From assembly GCA_030525825.1 (NCBI GenBank), contig JAUNDZ010000016.1, forward strand, positions 1-45,470: DNA of 45,470 nucleotides. Direction: 5' to 3'. Of the stretch, positions 1 through 5,872 are shown in pieces. Every line of letters begins with the position of its first letter. The first letter of the stretch is position 1. This DNA is from Moraxella sp. (GTDB lineage: Bacteria > Pseudomonadota > Gammaproteobacteria > Pseudomonadales > Moraxellaceae). The notes beneath the pieces are model-generated. The model saw only the letters and a program-made list of their open reading frames with translations, had not been told where the DNA came from and searched no databases. A program made the position numbers and the translations under genes.

Positions 1-53
1 TGTGATGAATGCACAGGGTCAAATGAGCCGCCAAGAAAAGCACGGATGGTCAT
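1..53 (-). CDS. nadD: Nicotinate-nucleotide adenylyltransferase, N-terminal fragment (cut by window edge)
   Basis: NadD adenylylates nicotinate mononucleotide to deamido-NAD in NAD synthesis. Only the first 17 codons are in the window. Read on the minus strand from the ATG at 53-51 they give MTIRAFLGGSFDPVHSS, and the next partial codon fits His or Gln. This is the GG-S/T-FDPxHxxH nucleotide-binding signature of the family, placed at the extreme N-terminus as expected. No strong ribosome site is visible upstream. The rest of the gene lies beyond the left edge. It marks a housekeeping boundary for the peptide island that begins on the other strand. The match is short but the motif is highly diagnostic. 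Confidence 0.82.
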   Translation of the reverse strand, partial: MTIRAFLGGSFDPVHSS

Positions 54-173
54 GGCTGATTGGGTAAATGGATTTGGGCTAGTGTAACAGAAGTTGGGCG
101 GGGTGGCAAATCAAAGACTGCCCATCAAAATCATTGAAATAATGTCCAAAATAATACTCGCAAAGATTAAACT

Positions 174-187
174 TATGATATATCATA
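174..187. repeat. 14-bp perfect palindrome upstream of the bacteriocin promoter
   Basis: TATGATATATCATA reads the same on both strands. It lies about 10 bases upstream of the -35 box of the peptide gene promoter, where an activator or repressor could bind. It is AT-rich, so chance is possible. No regulator is identified. Confidence 0.4.
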
Positions 188-196
188 TCTGATTAA

Positions 197-225
197 TTGA
201 TAATGATTAATGGTATCATTATATT
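197..225 (+). promoter_or_regulatory. Promoter of the double-glycine peptide gene with overlapping Fur-like operator
   Basis: A near-consensus sigma-70 promoter is visible: TTGATA at 197-202, a 17-base spacer, TATATT at 220-225. Transcription would start near 232, some 40 bases before the start codon. A perfect 7-bp inverted repeat, TAATGAT (201-207) and ATCATTA (215-221), fills the spacer. Bases 199-217 match 14 of 19 positions of the E. coli Fur box consensus. Colicin V expression is known to be Fur-regulated, so iron control is a reasonable but untested guess. Confidence 0.6.
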
Positions 226-273
226 TTATGGATACTTAAAGCATCCTTTGGCATTGATTAAATGGAGTGTATC

Positions 274-642
274 ATGCGTGAATTGTCTTTAAATGAAATT
301 GGTATGGTGAGTGGTGGCGTACACGACGATAAGGGCGGTGGTGGTTCGGGTTCGAGTCCGAGTTTGGGTATGGCTGGTTCCATGGGGGCTGGAGCGTTAG
401 GTGGTGCAGCAAACTATGGGGCTAGCACATTGGCTGGCGGCAAAGAATTTGATATGATGGATGCAGCAGTTGCTGTTAGTGGTGGTGCTTTGAGTGGCAC
501 TGTTGCCAAGTCATTGGAGAAAACGCATGGATTGGCTTTGTCTGTTGTTAGCGGTAATTTTGTTAGCGGATTTATTTCAGGAGTTCGCGAGAGATTTAAA
601 AGTCGAGAGAATAAAACAGGTGATGACTATCAGAGTCATTAA
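274..642 (+). CDS. Double-glycine leader peptide, class II microcin/bacteriocin precursor
   Basis: The 122-residue product starts MRELSLNEIGMVSGG, which closely follows the colicin V leader pattern (M-R-x-L-x-L-N-E...V-S-G-G). Such leaders are cleaved after GG by the C39 peptidase domain of a dedicated ABC exporter. The predicted mature part (about 107 residues) begins VHDD, has a Gly/Ser-rich stretch, then a hydrophobic Gly/Ala-rich region with small-xxx-small spacing, and ends in a charged tail. It has no cysteine. An ATG at 262 is in frame, but GGAG at 264-267 lies six bases before the ATG at 274, and that start gives the canonical leader. A small membrane protein gene follows almost directly. 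M. catarrhalis is known to make a GG-leader bacteriocin (McbC) with a small immunity protein (McbI). Whether this is a homologue cannot be judged by eye. Killing activity is inferred. Confidence 0.8.
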   Translation: MRELSLNEIGMVSGGVHDDKGGGGSGSSPSLGMAGSMGAGALGGAANYGASTLAGGKEFDMMDAAVAVSGGALSGTVAKSLEKTHGLALSVVSGNFVSGFISGVRERFKSRENKTGDDYQSH

Positions 643-648
643 GGAAAA

Positions 649-948
649 ATGATGCTGGGTTTCATTTGTCGTGATAGTTGGTTATGGCAGACTATCGGTT
701 TGATATTCTATGCAACAACCGCAAGTATTGTATTTATTTGCATACCTGCTTGTTTTATATTTTTGATAAGTAACTTATCATCCAATTATCGCCAAAAAAA
801 TAGATTATGGGTGGATATATTCAAGGATTTTTTTTCAACACTATTTAAAATGATAAAACTATTTTTGATTTACTATTCCATTTATGTGCTCACAACAGGA
901 GAAACAGATTTGACTTATATTGATGACTTTTTGTCTTGGTTTGAATGA
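649..948 (+). CDS. Small membrane protein, probable bacteriocin immunity protein (copy 1)
   Basis: A protein of about 99 residues with two or three hydrophobic segments (roughly 12-42 and 66-82) and a basic loop between them. It starts just past the peptide gene stop, and AAGGA at 641-645 overlaps that stop, so translation is probably coupled. The ATG at 652 is better spaced from that site than the ATG at 649. It shares an N-terminal W-x-x-x-IG and a C-terminal IYVLTTGETDLTYI motif with the next two ORFs, so the three are tandem paralogues. Small hydrophobic proteins directly 3' of a GG-leader peptide are usually immunity proteins. No named family is recognised, and the immunity role rests on context only. 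Confidence 0.62.
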   Translation: MMLGFICRDSWLWQTIGLIFYATTASIVFICIPACFIFLISNLSSNYRQKNRLWVDIFKDFFSTLFKMIKLFLIYYSIYVLTTGETDLTYIDDFLSWFE

Positions 949-1285
949 TTGTGATGTTGGACTATGATTTTTGGCTTTGGTACTATATTGGATTATTTGC
1001 TCTTGGTACTACTTTTGCCATTTTATGTGTCATATTACCTATGGCAGTATTCTTTTTTATCAAGGATGTTATTCGTTATATTATAGCAAAAGAGAAGGAT
1101 TGGTCTGGGCTTTGGAGAGAAATAAGACGAATTATTTGGATGTATACAGTCATGTTTTTGCCAGCTATGGTATTTACGCCCTGACGACTGGAAAAACCGA
1201 GCTGCCATATATACAGGTTTACTTTCTTATTTTTAAGGGAGTAATACAGATGATTGATGTGGGCAGTCGCTTGATAAACCGCTAA
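945..1285 (+). pseudogene. Second paralogue of the immunity-like membrane protein, disrupted by a frameshift
   Basis: The frame opened by the ATG at 945 overlaps the previous stop as ATGA and encodes MLDYDFWLWYYIG-type sequence like copy 3. It then ends at 1184 without the family's C-terminal motif. That motif (IYALTTGKTELPYI) is present in another frame and runs to a stop at 1285. Adding one T to the T5 run at 1155-1159 joins the halves into about 110 residues that align with both neighbours, giving MFFASYGIYALTTG across the join. It is therefore most simply one gene with a one-base deletion, or a sequencing error in a homopolymer. If real, only a truncated product lacking the last membrane segment would be made. 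Confidence 0.7.
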
Positions 1286-1324
1286 TAAGACAGGGGTAAT
1301 TATAATATCAAATACTAGGAGGTT

Positions 1325-1615
1325 GTGTTGGATTATGATTTTTGGATTGATTATATTGGAACGGTATTTTATGCAGTCAGTGTTTGCTTATTGATTGTTA
1401 TACCGTCTGTATGGATTTTTTCTTTGCTGACCAATATTATTGTAGCATACTGGAAGAAAAATTTAAATCTAAAAGCCATTTTAAAAAGTCATGTCGCCAT
1501 ACTATTTCAGAAAACAAAGCTATTTTTGATTTGTTACATTATCTATGTATTGCTGACAGGTAAATTTGAGTTGCCGCATATCAAGAATTTTTTCTTATCT
1601 TTATTGGGAGGTTGA
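1325..1615 (+). CDS. Small membrane protein, probable bacteriocin immunity protein (copy 3)
   Basis: About 95 residues with two strongly hydrophobic segments (roughly 10-40 and 66-85) separated by a lysine-rich loop. It begins LDYDFWIDYIG and carries the family C-terminal motif IYVLLTGKFELPHI. AGGAGG at 1317-1322 is only two bases before GTG 1325 and five before TTG 1328, so the true start may be TTG 1328. There is no ATG in frame nearby. The preceding 39-base gap contains TATAAT at 1301-1306 but no convincing -35. Function is inferred from paralogy and position next to two peptide genes, one intact and one decayed. Confidence 0.58.
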   Translation: MLDYDFWIDYIGTVFYAVSVCLLIVIPSVWIFSLLTNIIVAYWKKNLNLKAILKSHVAILFQKTKLFLICYIIYVLLTGKFELPHIKNFFLSLLGG

Positions 1616-1616
1616 A

Positions 1617-1918
1617 ATGACTGGCTTTGATATAAGTTTTTTGGAAATTATTTTGGCAGGTGTTCTAAAAAATTTGTAAACATGGCTGGTGCTGCCGAAG
1701 CATTATGTTGAGAAAGACGAGTTGGTATTAAGTGCCGCACTAGGTGCAGTGATGGGGTTTTTGGTGGTTCTATCAATTTTGGAAAATAAGCGGTCAATAT
1801 AATCGGCACCGATACTTTATCAGGGGCTGTGCAGGCAGGTTATCACAATCAAAAATCAGGCAATAATAAGGTTGATAAAGCTGGATTGAGTTATCAAGAT
1901 GATGGAAAAGGTAGGTAA
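1617..1918 (+). pseudogene. Degenerate second bacteriocin-like peptide gene
   Basis: An excellent ribosome site, GGGAGG at 1606-1611, leads to an ATG at 1617 that is open for only 20 codons. The short product contains ISFLEIILAG, reminiscent of the EIxxVSGG end of the leader of the intact peptide. Beyond the stop, peptide-like pieces appear in successive frames: an Ala/Gly-rich MAGAAEAL piece, a hydrophobic LSAALGAVMGF piece, and a tail with GTDTLSGAVQAGYHNQ and SGNNK that ends at 1918. The tail resembles the SGNFVSGFISG...SRENK end of the intact peptide. At least two indels would be needed to restore one frame. Good translation signals and a following immunity-like ORF support a dead paralogue. 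The assignment remains tentative. Confidence 0.42.
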
Positions 1919-1922
1919 TTTG

Positions 1923-2135
1923 ATGGATTTTTTCAGATTTTTGGAGTTGCTCTCACTATTTATTGCTAGTTTTTTGGGTGCAGCATCAGCATATTGGCTG
2001 ATTTATCGCCGATTCCCAAAAGTTAAGCAGAAGCTGGGCGATTTTGCCTATACGGCTGTTGTTGCTTGTCATATTCTTGGCTATTTTGTCATGCAAGAGC
2101 CGATTTTTAAAATACTACTTTTTATTTTTGGTTAA
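1923..2135 (+). CDS. Small two-segment membrane protein, possible immunity protein of the second peptide
   Basis: About 70 residues from the ATG at 1923, which TAGG at 1912-1915 precedes by seven bases. In-frame ATGs at 1899 and 1902 would overlap the decayed peptide gene and lack a ribosome site. There are two hydrophobic segments (roughly 8-28 and 48-70) around a basic loop, RRFPKVKQK. It shows no obvious similarity to the three upstream paralogues. It lies five bases after the end of the decayed peptide gene, repeating the peptide-then-membrane-protein layout of the first unit. An orphan immunity protein is the best contextual guess. A holin-like or other small membrane protein cannot be excluded. 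Confidence 0.5.
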   Translation: MDFFRFLELLSLFIASFLGAASAYWLIYRRFPKVKQKLGDFAYTAVVACHILGYFVMQEPIFKILLFIFG

Positions 2136-2229
2136 AAAGTTGCGTTTGCTTTTGGGTGTTTTTAAGTGATGTGTTGAGAACTTATGGAAAACCACCCAGC
2201 TTTTATCGGTAATTTTTTGAGTTTGTGTT

Positions 2230-2700
2230 ATGCTATCTAATATGCTCAATGATTTTATTGATGATTATCAAGACAAAAAACCTATTGTTGTTAAAAAATG
2301 TTTTGATACTGGTGGTTTGACTTGGGGAAAAATTAATAAAATTGTAGAAAGAAACAATATTAATTCCGATGAGTTTAAAATAGCTTATCAAGGTATTGTG
2401 GCAAAACATCATTATATTGAAACTTTCGATGAAGTAGGTACGGTTCGTCATCGCCTAATAAAGCCCGTCATCTATAATTTACTAAAAAACGGGGCAACTT
2501 TAATTGCCAATAGAATTATCAATGAACCTGCTATTGATAAGTTTGCTAGACAAATTGCTAGGTTAACAGGTAGACAAACCGTTACCAGTATGTATGTTGC
2601 TTTTGGGGACAAGGATTCTTATAAGGCTCATTGGGATACTCGTGATGTTTTTGCCATTCAGATTAAGGGGCGTAAGCGTTGGGTAATGAAGATCTATTAA
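2230..2700 (+). pseudogene. Truncated JmjC/cupin_4 2-oxoglutarate oxygenase
   Basis: The 156-residue product matches the N-terminal and central part of the bacterial JmjC/cupin_4 (YcfD-like) oxygenases. These hydroxylate amino acids using Fe(II) and 2-oxoglutarate. The order fits: an ATLIANRI strand, then the H134-W-D136 iron ligands, then DVFAIQIKGRKRW. The ORF stops five residues after the RKRW strand, so the distal histidine ligand and the C-terminal part are missing. Full-length family members are usually well over twice this size. Bases after the stop encode an unrelated membrane segment in another frame, which suggests a deletion or recombination joint. Such enzymes can modify peptides, so it may be a remnant of a tailoring gene, but that is speculation. 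No good ribosome site is seen. Confidence 0.6.
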
Positions 2701-2882
2701 AAGACATATCTTTTAGGATTGTCATCATCATTCCTGTCATGATTTTATTTTATTTATTTAAAATCTTGATGGAGAATAAGAAATATCAAAAAAATTTATT
2801 CTACATAAGCAAGAAACAAAAAAGGGAAGTATTCATTGGTTTGATTGTATTTTTAATATCTTTTTTCTACTATGTTTCTTAA
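2679..2882 (+). CDS. Small hypothetical membrane protein
   Basis: A 67-residue reading frame from TTG 2679 that overlaps the end of the truncated oxygenase. It has two hydrophobic segments (roughly 12-29 and 51-65) separated by a very basic stretch (KKYQKN...KKQKRE). AAGGGG near 2667-2672 could serve as a ribosome site. The lack of an ATG and the overlap suggest that the original 5' end was lost at the same joint that cut the oxygenase. Layout resembles the small membrane proteins upstream, but no sequence family is recognised. Confidence 0.35.
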   Translation: MGNEDLLKDISFRIVIIIPVMILFYLFKILMENKKYQKNLFYISKKQKREVFIGLIVFLISFFYYVS

Positions 2883-3007
2883 TGGCGATATCGATAATAA
2901 AGATTTTCTAAATAAAACCTAAGGGTACTTTAAAAAGCGTGCCATTTGCCCCATTATGTTTTATCATATGATTGAAACATAAAAGACGAACAATAAGGCA
3001 AAAACCC

Positions 3008-5872
3008 ATGGCACACGAGTACATCAGCATCAAAGGGGCAAAGACCCACAACCTAAAAGACATCGATGTCGATATTCCACGAGACAAATTGGTCGTGATT
3101 ACAGGCTTGTCAGGCTCTGGCAAATCATCGCTTGCCTTTGATACGCTCTATGCCGAAGGGCAACGCCGTTATGTGGAGAGCTTATCGGCTTATGCTCGCC
3201 AGTTTTTAAGCCAGATGGATAAACCAGAAGTCGATAGCATTGAGGGCTTATCCCCTGCCATCGCCATCGAACAAAAATCCACCAACCATAACCCCCGCTC
3301 CACAGTCGGCACGATTACCGAAGTGTATGACTACTTGCGTCTTTTGTTTGCTCGTGTTGGCACGCCCCACTGTCCAGAGCATGGCTTGCCGATGGTGGCT
3401 CAGACGGTGAGCGAGATGGTGGACGATGTTTTGGCTAAGCCAGAGGGAACCAAACTCATGCTTTTAGCTCCTGTGGTACGTGAACGAAAAGGTGAGCATA
3501 TTGCCCTGCTTGAAAACCTGCAAGCACAGGGCTTTACCAAAGTGCGTATCGATGGGGTGGTGTACGACATGGACGAGCTACCCACCCTTGCCAAAACACA
3601 CAAACACACCATTGAGGTGGTGGTGGATAGATTTAGGGTGCGAGCGGATTTGGGCAACCGAGTGGCAGAGAGCTTGGAGACGGCTCTTAGACTGGGAGGC
3701 GACATTGCGACATTACACGAGATGGACGAGGGGAGCGAGACGGTACTGTCTGCCAAACACGCTTGCCCTGCTTGTGATAGGGCGGTCAGCGAATTAGAGC
3801 CTCGTTTGTTTAGCTTTAATAATCCTTATGGGGCGTGTCCGTCTTGTGATGGACTGGGCAAGCGCCAGTATTTTAGTGCCGAGCGTATCGTTACCGAGCC
3901 TGCCAAATCCATCAATCAAGGGACGATACACGGCTGGGACAAACGCCATGCCTATTATTTTGGACTGCTTACGACCGTGTGTGAGCATTTTGGCATTGAT
4001 ATGGATAAGCCGTGGCAGGAGTTGCCCAAAAAAGAACAAAACATCATCCTAAACGGCTCAGGTAAAGAAAAACTCACCTTTCATTTTACTGATGAGCGAG
4101 GGCGTAAGACAGTTAAAACGACTGCCTTTGAAGGGATTTTGCCGTATTTAGAACGCCGTTATCACAGCACCACCAGTAACATTGTGAAAGATGAGCTGGC
4201 TCAATATCTGTCTGACACCACCTGTAATGTCTGTGATGGCGTACGCCTAAACGACATCGCTCGCCATGTCGAGGTGGACGGTCGTGTGATGGGCGACATC
4301 ATTACCCTGCCCATCGGTCAGGCGTGGCAGTATTATGAAAACTTGCACATCGGTGGACACAAAGGCGAGGTGGCAGATAAGATTTTTAAAGAAATCCGTG
4401 AGCGTTTGGGCTTTTTGACCAAAGTGGGGCTAGAATACTTGACCCTTGCTCGCTCGGCTGAGACCCTATCAGGTGGTGAAGCACAGCGTATCCGCCTAGC
4501 CAGCCAAATCGGAGCAGGGCTGATGGGCGTGATGTATGTACTGGACGAGCCGTCCATTGGACTTCATCAAAGAGATAACGACCGTCTGTTATCCACGCTA
4601 ACCCACCTTAGGGATTTGGGCAATACCGTCATTGTGGTGGAGCATGATGAGGACGCCATTCGCACCGCTGACCACATCATTGACATTGGTGTGGGGGCAG
4701 GGGTGCATGGGGGCAGTATCATCGCCACAGGGACGGCAGACGAGATTGCAGGTCATGAACACTCATTAACAGGGCGGTATCTGTCAGGCAAAAAACGCAT
4801 AGAAATCCCCAAAATTCGCCACACCGCCAAGATGGGCGAGATTAAAAAAGGCAAAAAGATAGTCAAAGAACCCTTATATATCCGCCTAGATGGGGCAAAG
4901 GGCAATAACCTAAAAAATGTCAATCTACAAATCCCCATCGGTGTCATGACCTGCATCACAGGCGTGTCAGGCTCTGGCAAATCCACGCTCATCAACCGCA
5001 CGCTTATGCCACTGTCTGCCACACACCTAAATGGAGCGACCACGCTTGTGGCAGAGCCCCATGATAAAATCACAGGGCTAGAACACCTAGATAAAATGGT
5101 GGACATTGACCAATCCCCCATCGGTCGTACCCCTCGCTCCAACCCTGCCACTTATACAGGGGTGTTTACGCTCATCAGAGACCTATTTACCCAGACCCCC
5201 GAAGCTCGGGCAAGGGGCTATAAGGCAGGGCGGTTTAGCTTTAATGTCAAAGGCGGTCGCTGTGAGGCGTGTCAGGGCGATGGCATGATTAAGGTGGAGA
5301 TGCACTTTTTGCCTGATATGTATGTGCCGTGTGATGTCTGTCATGGCAAACGCTACAACCGTGAGACCCTAGAAGTCCACTATAAGGGCAAATCCATCTC
5401 TGATGTGCTGGACATGACGGTGGAGGACGCACTTGCCTTTTTTGAGGCAATCCCTGCCATTCATCGCAAACTAGAAGCACTCATGCAAGTGGGCTTGGGT
5501 TATATCACGCTGGGGCAGTCTGCCACCACGCTTTCAGGGGGTGAGGCTCAACGAGTCAAACTTGCCAAAGAGCTTGCCAAGCGAGACACAGGGCAGACCT
5601 TGTATATCCTAGATGAGCCGACCACAGGACTGCATTTTCATGACATTGCCAAACTGCTTGACATTTTGCACGCCCTTAGAGACAAGGGCAACACGGTGGT
5701 GGTGATTGAGCATAATTTAGATGTGATAAAGACGGCTGACCATATCGTGGATTTGGGCTATGAGGGCGGAGATGGTGGCGGTCAGATTGTCGCTGTCGGC
5801 ACGCCTGAGGAGGTGGCACAAGACGAGCGGTCGCATACAGGACGGTTTTTAAAACCGATGCTTAGTATGTAG
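3008..5872 (+). CDS. uvrA: UvrABC excinuclease subunit A
   Basis: The damage-recognition ATPase of nucleotide excision repair. It acts as a dimer that loads UvrB at lesions. The 954-residue product has the full tandem ABC layout: Walker A GLSGSGKS at 33-40, a zinc module CPAC...CPSC, the first signature [12 protein letters not shown], a second Walker A GVSGSGKS, a second zinc module CEAC...CDVC, and the second signature [12 protein letters not shown] with a DEPTTGLH Walker B. Length is normal. ATG 3008 ([10 protein letters not shown]) was chosen because it matches family N-termini and has AAGG at 2995-2998. A longer frame from TTG 2972 has no such support. No clear SOS box was seen upstream. 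It marks the right border of the peptide island. Confidence 0.97.

What the first reader, a model, noticed from the sequence alone, without database searches (positions are those of the whole stretch)
197..2900. Microcin-like double-glycine peptide locus inserted between nadD and uvrA
The sequence shows a 15-residue colicin V-type leader ending in GG, a Gly/Ala-rich cysteine-free mature peptide of about 107 residues, and several small membrane proteins directly downstream. Both flanks are housekeeping genes. GG leaders of this form are processed by C39-peptidase ABC exporters. The mature sequence is not one I recognise, so this may be an undescribed bacteriocin family with its own immunity proteins.
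Basis: partly seen in the sequence, partly recalled or inferred. Interest (0 to 1): 0.85.

Follow-up and report, generated by a model that had tools for sequence, protein, structure and literature searches.

The report
Decayed microcin island with oxygenase remnant
The sequence holds the worn-down remains of a bacterial weapon system: a small exported killing peptide, its probable protection proteins and half of an oxygen-using enzyme; relatives elsewhere keep fuller sets, and their peptides share a short tyrosine motif that the enzyme probably acts on.

Summary
Between nadD (N-terminal end, contig edge) and uvrA lies a 2.95-kb low-GC insert: a microcin-type precursor with a 15-residue GG leader and a 107-residue cysteine-free mature part, plus small membrane ORFs.

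ORF 2230-2700 is the N-terminal part of a JmjC_2 (RoxA-like) oxygenase. Window 1620-1918 holds a decayed second GG peptide. One membrane ORF is frameshifted. The C39 exporter is gone: only its last four codons and stop remain (2908-2922), and the 88.8%-complete genome gave no C39 match.

Two relatives carry a fuller, partly broken island at nadD-uvrA with JmjC, HlyD and C39 genes; seven have a gap of only 0.1-0.9 kb. JmjC-HlyD-C39-GG-peptide loci recur in Acinetobacter, Neisseria, Pseudomonas, Marinobacter, Thiopseudomonas, Delftia and Nitrincola.

Peptides beside this JmjC carry a terminal [S/A]G-x-x-Y motif (33 of 42 ORFs; 0 of 16 in JmjC-less C39 loci, one of which has it internally). I propose that the oxygenase binds and probably oxidises this motif. 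'Cupin-like' genes in microcin loci are published (A. baumannii mcaB, E. coli mctC) with conflicting roles; my searches found no report of the motif.

The window copy is probably non-producing.

The parts
1..53 (-). 5' end of nadD (first 17 residues; contig begins here)
   Evidence: reverse complement reads MTIRAFLGGSFDPVHSS, same start as NadD of M. oculi in L007
197..225 (+). promoter-like site TTGATA-17-TATATT over a palindrome (ATAATGAT - 7 nt - ATCATTAT), possible Fur-type operator
   Evidence: one of three best-scoring of 20 sites, 12.4 expected; match to a recalled Fur consensus only 14 of 19, shuffle p about 0.04: weak
274..642 (+). GG-leader microcin-type precursor (leader 274-318, mature 319-639)
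   Evidence: homologues in L007, L009, L010, L055
616..630 (+). terminal motif TGDDY (end of protein: K-T-G-D-D-Y-Q-S-H)
   Evidence: motif statistics
649..948 (+). small membrane protein TM1, probable immunity protein
   Evidence: 36% over 83 aa to the ORF after a GG peptide in L009 (E 4e-8); 42% to TM3 (E 9e-15)
945..1285 (+). TM2, paralogue of TM1/TM3 that looks broken by a frameshift (frames 945-1184 and 971-1285)
1325..1615 (+). TM3, intact paralogue of TM1 (GTG start)
1620..1918 (+). decayed second GG peptide gene; remnant tail DKAGLSYQDD at 1874-1903
   Evidence: three-frame reading; tail resembles KAGLDYQDTNKK of the L010 peptide; DNA 75% over 1750-2687 to L010
1923..2135 (+). TM4, probable immunity partner of the decayed peptide
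   Evidence: 77% to L010 5088-5294, which follows the intact homologous peptide; dN/dS 0.37
2230..2700 (+). N-terminal part of a JmjC_2 (RoxA-like) oxygenase; homology stops at 2687; HxD present, distal His missing
   Evidence: PF08007 E 6.5e-12; 81% to L010 homologue; triad check
2679..2882 (+). TM5, small membrane ORF (TTG start, uncertain)
   Evidence: two hydrophobic segments; no homologue at E<=0.01 in the 15 loci searched
2908..2922 (+). scar: last four codons and stop of the C39 exporter gene (LNKT*)
   Evidence: same 15 nt at the exporter end in L055; 98% match of 2908-3010 to L056, starting inside its exporter's 3' end
3008..5872 (+). uvrA, right flank

Best explanation
The locus is the decayed, mosaic remnant of a JmjC-coupled class II microcin island at the nadD-uvrA site.

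How the complete system most likely works. (1) A precursor with a GG leader is made. (2) A RoxA-like Fe(II)/2-oxoglutarate JmjC oxygenase binds the short terminal [S/A]G-x-x-Y motif and oxidises a residue in it. (3) The C39 ABC exporter with HlyD cuts the leader after GG and exports the peptide. (4) Peptide bodies have their own small inner-membrane immunity proteins, and bodies and immunity genes are swapped as units.

In this genome a deletion runs from the middle of the JmjC gene to the end of the exporter gene. That leaves an intact but probably unexported peptide, a dead second peptide and several intact membrane genes that may still give immunity against related strains.

Shown by sequence: the gene content, the deletion scar, the fuller island in two relatives, and the motif-JmjC association. 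Inferred from homology: export, killing, immunity. Hypothesis: that the motif is the oxygenase's substrate, and the chemistry.
For: Island: of 19 genus genomes with a nadD hit, seven have uvrA 0.1-0.9 kb away (G001, G003, G004, G013, G014, G020, G021) and two carry an island between the genes, G006 (7.6 kb) and G010 (6.5 kb). G006 has two JmjC genes, two GG peptides, small ORFs, HlyD and C39; G010 has one full and one truncated JmjC, one GG peptide, HlyD and C39.

Loss: window 2908-2922 is the exporter's last four codons and stop; no C39 match in the genome. In 346 genomes of the family JmjC occurs in 17 and the C39 exporter in 31, 15 with both (Fisher 5e-16). The two JmjC-only genomes, G000 and G021, have truncated or fragmented JmjC genes.

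Enzyme: HxD...H invariant in the 22 homologues aligned; best solved relatives NO66, MINA53 and RoxA (E 5e-13 to 3e-10).

Motif: 33 of 42 ORFs against 12.2 expected by shuffling, in all 33 near a terminus; 1 of 16 (internal) in JmjC-less C39 loci; Fisher 5.7e-7. By locus, 27 of 32 JmjC loci against 0 of 29 (14 of those 29 gave any ORF) have a terminal-motif peptide. By peptide cluster 9 of 16 vs 0 of 11, p 0.003. Of 20 residues tested at the last position, Tyr gave 33 observed vs 7.5 expected; the next largest ratio was His, 4 vs 1.6.

Against: No killing, export or hydroxylation was measured. Nine of 42 JmjC-locus ORFs lack the motif. Three look like chance ORFs (L009 15678, L078 2755, L079 13919); two (L007 6483, L013 9354) have a homologous or motif-type tail in another frame; the other four are L010 6262, L010 8390, L057 7115 and McbC. 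Five of 32 JmjC loci have no motif peptide (L011, L013, L057, L078, L083). The more distant JmjC loci L089 and L090 (0 of 2) lack the motif, and so, by eye, does E. coli MctA, so the link holds for this JmjC subfamily only. PMC10333792 reports that the cupin-like gene alone protects, which favours an immunity role. Peptides are related to each other, so 5.7e-7 overstates independence, and the motif was noticed in the same loci that were then counted. The one further genome that fitted (L128) is a congener of L079 with a related peptide, so it adds little. Broken JmjC genes also occur beside exporters (G004, G005, one G009 copy). The own genome is 88.8% complete, so an exporter elsewhere is not excluded.
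Confidence: 0.7

Rival explanations
1. The JmjC protein is an immunity factor: it binds or modifies the microcin (or its target) in the producer and in kin, and the Tyr motif is its docking site. The window keeps a set of immunity genes only.
For: PMC10333792 (passages): mcaB alone protected a microcin-sensitive deletion strain. Motif and JmjC co-occur, which fits binding as well as catalysis.
Against: PMC8853679 (passages): deletion of mctC abolished the microcin's activity in culture supernatants, complementation restored it, and immunity mapped to mctDE. Several Moraxella peptides already have a small, by eye hydrophobic, ORF downstream. The iron-binding triad is conserved in the 22 homologues aligned, unexpected for a mere binder.
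Confidence: 0.25
2. The motif is an uptake or receptor-binding tag that happens to travel with this lineage of microcin loci; JmjC does something else (for example modifies a host protein or another residue of the peptide).
For: The motif is mobile: right after the leader in M. catarrhalis-type peptides, at the C-end elsewhere. One published relative uses the iron-catecholate receptor Fiu (PMC10333792) and another CirA (PMC8853679).
Against: No terminal motif in 16 ORFs of C39 loci without JmjC, among them five loci of one other genus of the family (three of these with near-identical peptides), Moraxella G016, and CvaC, although microcin V also uses CirA according to PMC8853679.
Confidence: 0.25
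3. The window locus is not a remnant but an active peptide-immunity cassette that borrows an exporter encoded elsewhere, for instance on a plasmid like the M. oculi 11.5-kb contig.
For: M. oculi has an exporter on a separate 11.5-kb contig with ORFs that look, by eye, like a relaxase and a replication protein (L008). The peptide ORF and TM1, TM3, TM4 are intact; TM4 dN/dS 0.37.
Against: No C39 match in the own genome, JmjC truncated, second peptide decayed, TM2 frameshifted.
Confidence: 0.2
4. The GG ORF and membrane ORFs are unrelated spurious ORFs in a low-GC intergenic stretch.
For: One ORF is frameshifted and a stretch is decayed.
Against: The same order of peptide, small ORF and JmjC gene is found in four other Moraxella genomes (L007, L009, L010, L055).
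Confidence: 0.02

Closest known systems
A. baumannii mcaABCD / microcin Mcc17978 (PMC10333792, passages read)
   Same: GG/GA-leader peptide, cupin-like gene, HlyD, C39 exporter in one locus; the A. baumannii plasmid pMC23.1 locus fetched here (L012) has that order and a peptide ending AGNDYCEDGGNY
   Different: Window has no HlyD or C39 and only part of the JmjC gene; it has several small membrane genes. The Mcc17978 and McaB sequences themselves were not compared (not in the text seen)
M. catarrhalis mcbABCI bacteriocin (PMC2761928, sections 6, 7, 9 and abstract read)
   Same: Same genus, GG leader, HlyD and C39 exporter of the same kind (pLQ510 exporter 75% identical to that of M. cuniculi); pLQ510 also carries a JmjC gene upstream of mcbA, annotated as cupin domain protein and split into two ORFs
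   Different: McbC has no SGxxY motif and no match to the window peptide at E<=0.01; the words cupin and JmjC do not occur in the paper's text
E. coli Mcc1229 mctABC (PMC8853679, passages read)
   Same: JmjC_2/cupin gene in a microcin operon; deletion abolishes activity
   Different: JmjC about 24% identical over two thirds of the length; cysteine-rich precursor without the motif (read by eye); no HlyD among the nine annotated features
Ribosomal oxygenases RoxA/YcfD, NO66, MINA53
   Same: JmjC_2 domain with HxD...H; weak, below-cut-off match to the ROXA-like winged helix (E 0.006)
   Different: Encoded beside microcin genes; that these oxygenases act on ribosomal proteins is from a search listing and recall
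BipG, JmjC ornithine hydroxylase of biphenomycin (PMC12707348, passages)
   Same: JmjC enzyme that hydroxylates a ribosomally made peptide
   Different: Different peptide class; no GG leader or C39 exporter in the passages read; sequence not compared

Membership tests
Class II microcins (GG leader, C39/HlyD export) | 15-residue-type leader ending in GG/GA | tested here: met
   MRELSLNEIGMVSGG at 274-318
Class II microcins (GG leader, C39/HlyD export) | C39 ABC exporter and HlyD adaptor in the locus or genome | tested here: not met
   no C39 or HlyD match in the window locus; PF03412 0 of 1 own genome; HlyD elsewhere in the genome was not searched; scar of exporter at 2908-2922. Met in relatives
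Class II microcins (GG leader, C39/HlyD export) | antibacterial activity of the mature peptide | not testable with these tools
   no assay
Class II microcins (GG leader, C39/HlyD export) | cognate immunity gene next to the peptide | tested here: inconclusive
   small membrane genes downstream; peptide-gene pairs shared between loci; protection not tested
mcaABCD-type cupin/JmjC microcin loci | full-length JmjC/cupin gene beside the peptide | tested here: not met
   only 156 N-terminal residues remain, distal His absent; met in relatives
mcaABCD-type cupin/JmjC microcin loci | sequence relation of the JmjC gene to an A. baumannii microcin-locus cupin gene | tested here: met
   42% identity, E 8e-97 between the L010 homologue and an A. 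baumannii plasmid gene; window part 81% to L010. McaB of strain 17978 itself not compared
mcbABCI | peptide homologous to McbC | tested here: not met
   McbC stays alone in clustering; no hit
RoxA/NO66/MINA53 ribosomal oxygenases | JmjC_2 domain with HxD...H | tested here: met
   invariant in the 22 homologues aligned, PF08007 E 7e-28 for the L010 protein; the window fragment itself lacks the distal His
RoxA/NO66/MINA53 ribosomal oxygenases | hydroxylates a ribosomal protein | not testable with these tools
   no assay; genome context argues for another substrate

The most novel reading that the evidence does not exclude
There is an undescribed class of ribosomally made microcins in which a RoxA-like JmjC oxygenase converts the conserved terminal SGxxY motif (one or two copies) into an oxidised, metal-binding group, such as a catechol from Tyr or a beta-hydroxy Asn/Asp next to it. 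This would be a gene-encoded siderophore mimic that lets the peptide enter through catecholate-type TonB receptors such as Fiu or CirA. It would do the job that an attached siderophore does for class IIb microcins. M. catarrhalis, where the leader plus motif is nearly constant and the bodies vary, would show it as a reusable entry module.
Probability: 0.2. Interest if true: 0.9.

Novelty: new variant of a known kind. Interest (0 to 1): 0.62.

Why it matters
Two published studies give the cupin-like gene of microcin loci opposite roles (immunity in A. baumannii, needed for activity in E. coli). The present comparison shows that this gene type is a RoxA-like JmjC oxygenase with a conserved iron site, tied in one subfamily to a specific tyrosine motif in the peptides it travels with. 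That turns an open question into a direct test: look for a mass shift on the motif. If true, it adds a class of modified microcins and a genome-mining rule (GG leader plus terminal SGxxY plus JmjC). The window itself documents how such an island decays, losing the modifier and exporter while several membrane (probable immunity) genes stay intact.

Tried and rejected
Fur box: the palindrome upstream of the peptide is attractive, but the consensus match is weak (14 of 19) and most other JmjC loci show no convincing box; kept as a suggestion only. Spurious-ORF rival: rejected on homologues. Defence-system library: no match for the six window proteins given. Rfam: none in 1-4000. Viral contigs: one distant JmjC (23% identity). 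Wider samples, own genome included in the first two counts: order 2 of 390, phylum 2 of 398, the genus of G892 2 of 53, the genus of G143 0 of 25: the JmjC subfamily is rare outside Moraxella at these thresholds.

Leader regex: a first version was wrong; it was replaced and widened slightly, and the form was used for the count. It missed the L128 peptide (leader ends VGAG, found by eye) and a second L084 peptide (5226-5630, relaxed regex); neither was added to the counts. The motif was noticed in the same loci later counted, so one search is not an independent test; searches are checks on the same data. L127 is the same contig as L079 and not counted. L128 is a congener of L079.

Control set: 29 C39 loci without JmjC (L062, L095-L122); 14 of them gave at least one ORF, 16 ORFs in all, of which I judge 3 to be chance ORFs (kept). 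JmjC set: 32 loci after leaving out 8 duplicates (L068, L069, L080, L082, L085, L086, L087, L094); 27 of 32 have a terminal-motif peptide. Three of the 42 ORFs look like chance ORFs (kept). L089 and L090 were scored apart. L067 had no core hit and is in neither set. L014 (E. coli Mcc1229 plasmid), L015 (Salmonella), L123-L128 were fetched but not put into the count. A list named 'drop' in the script was defined but not used; no rows were removed. 'Terminal' means within 20 residues of the leader or 30 of the end; for the three JmjC-locus ORFs with a mature part of 50 residues or less this covers the whole peptide (one of them has the motif). dN/dS of TM1 against TM3 was saturated and gave no value.

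Full report
What is there. The window is contig C16 of a 1.82-Mb draft genome of 88.8% completeness. It starts inside nadD: bases 1-53 read on the minus strand as MTIRAFLGGSFDPVHSS. uvrA begins at 3008. Between them GC falls to 31-36% (501-3000). It ends in KTGDDYQSH.

Downstream genes. TM1 (649-948), a copy that looks frameshifted (945-1285) and TM3 (1325-1615) are paralogues (TM1 vs TM3 42% over 80 residues, E 9e-15). The stretch 1620-1918 is a decayed second GG peptide; its tail DKAGLSYQDD resembles the tail of an intact Moraxella peptide in L010. It is followed by TM4 (1923-2135), 77% identical to the small gene that follows that L010 peptide. ORF 2230-2700 matches Pfam JmjC_2 at 6.5e-12 and is 81% identical to the first 153 residues of a 381-residue protein in L010; homology ends at 2687. 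A further membrane ORF lies at 2679-2882. Bases 2908-2922 are the last four codons and stop of the C39 exporter gene found at this place in G006, and 2908-3010 is 98% identical to G010. The own genome has no C39 match.

The enzyme. A scan of genome contigs gave 20 named loci, 16 of them with a C39 exporter in the fetched stretch, one of these (L083) distant. Genera: Moraxella, Pseudomonas, Marinobacter, Thiopseudomonas, Delftia, Nitrincola, Herbaspirillum, and without an exporter in the stretch Burkholderia. Plasmid records added A. baumannii, M. catarrhalis pLQ510 and a N. gonorrhoeae record. Of 346 genomes of the family, 17 have the JmjC gene (E<=1e-30) and 31 the exporter (E<=1e-8, a 106-residue probe); 15 have both (Fisher 5e-16). 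The two with JmjC but no exporter, the window and G021 (M. catarrhalis), have truncated or fragmented JmjC genes; but broken copies also occur beside exporters (G004, G005, one in G009). In the 22 homologues aligned the iron-binding residues H134, D136 and H200 (numbering of the L010 protein) are invariant; eight further ones checked, including the distant ones of L089, L090 and E. coli MctC, also have both parts. The nearest solved structures are NO66, MINA53 and the L16 arginine hydroxylase. That it is a 2-oxoglutarate oxygenase acting on a peptide or protein is inference from homology.

Mechanism. Shown: gene content, scar, fuller island in relatives, motif-enzyme association. Inferred from families: leader cleavage after GG by C39, export through HlyD, killing, membrane immunity. 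Hypothesis: JmjC acts on the motif. The literature gives two opposite roles for this gene type: mcaB alone protects in A. baumannii (PMC10333792), while mctC is needed for activity and immunity lies in mctDE in E. coli, whose authors say that modification is possible (PMC8853679). Passages of both were read. A motif-binding oxygenase can accommodate both. Mcc17978 enters through Fiu and Mcc1229 through CirA (same passages), which is why a siderophore-like product is worth testing; it is not shown.

Prior art. Searches, of which I saw the listings (titles and abstract starts) unless said otherwise: JmjC with microcin (3 papers; passages of PMC12707348 read); JmjC with bacteriocin and hydroxyl; microcin with cupin-like and immunity (passages of both read); class II microcin, post-translational modification, cupin (299 hold two of the terms, 12 listed); microcin with 2-oxoglutarate and hydroxylation (8 listed); class II microcin with Moraxella; ribosomal oxygenase, RiPP, JmjC (12 listed); class II microcin with tyrosine and conserved motif. 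In what I saw there is no statement of the motif or of a JmjC maturase for microcins. The library holds open-licence papers only.

Verdict. What is new is the recognition of that enzyme as the hallmark of a wider family and its link to a tyrosine motif.

Noticed in passing
L011 (pLQ510) 39-1120: The M. catarrhalis mcb plasmid carries a JmjC gene, split into two ORFs, just upstream of mcbA; the words cupin and JmjC do not occur in the 2009 paper's text.
   Followed up: partly
L007 7151-8290: The M. oculi JmjC gene looks like a hybrid: its first half is of the type next to the window peptide, its second half of the second JmjC type; the switch lies at the conserved HWDTRDVF stretch.
   Followed up: partly
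L055 8153-9562, L056 9470-9616, L088 5805-5948: Short 5' pieces of the HlyD gene lie before or are fused to JmjC genes, as if a JmjC-small gene-peptide cassette had been inserted behind the HlyD start.
   Followed up: no
L013 7971-14101: A N. gonorrhoeae record has JmjC, a GG peptide whose motif-like tail lies in another frame, HlyD and a split C39 exporter.
   Followed up: no
L117 2363-7094: On a Serratia marcescens plasmid a gene annotated as a TcdA/TcdB catalytic glycosyltransferase domain protein lies directly before HlyD and C39 exporter genes.
   Followed up: no
L089 and L090: Distant JmjC genes go with two closely similar peptides ending NNGNSSEDGDG without the Tyr motif; enzyme subtype and peptide tail may change together.
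   Followed up: no
L078 and L083: Burkholderia guangdongensis and Herbaspirillum sp. AP02 carry full-length JmjC relatives without a recognised motif-bearing GG peptide nearby.
   Followed up: partly
[not shown]
   Followed up: partly
L047 (G021) between nadD and uvrA: In the M. catarrhalis genome the nadD-uvrA gap is about 0.9 kb, longer than in the other short sites; its content was not read.
   Followed up: no
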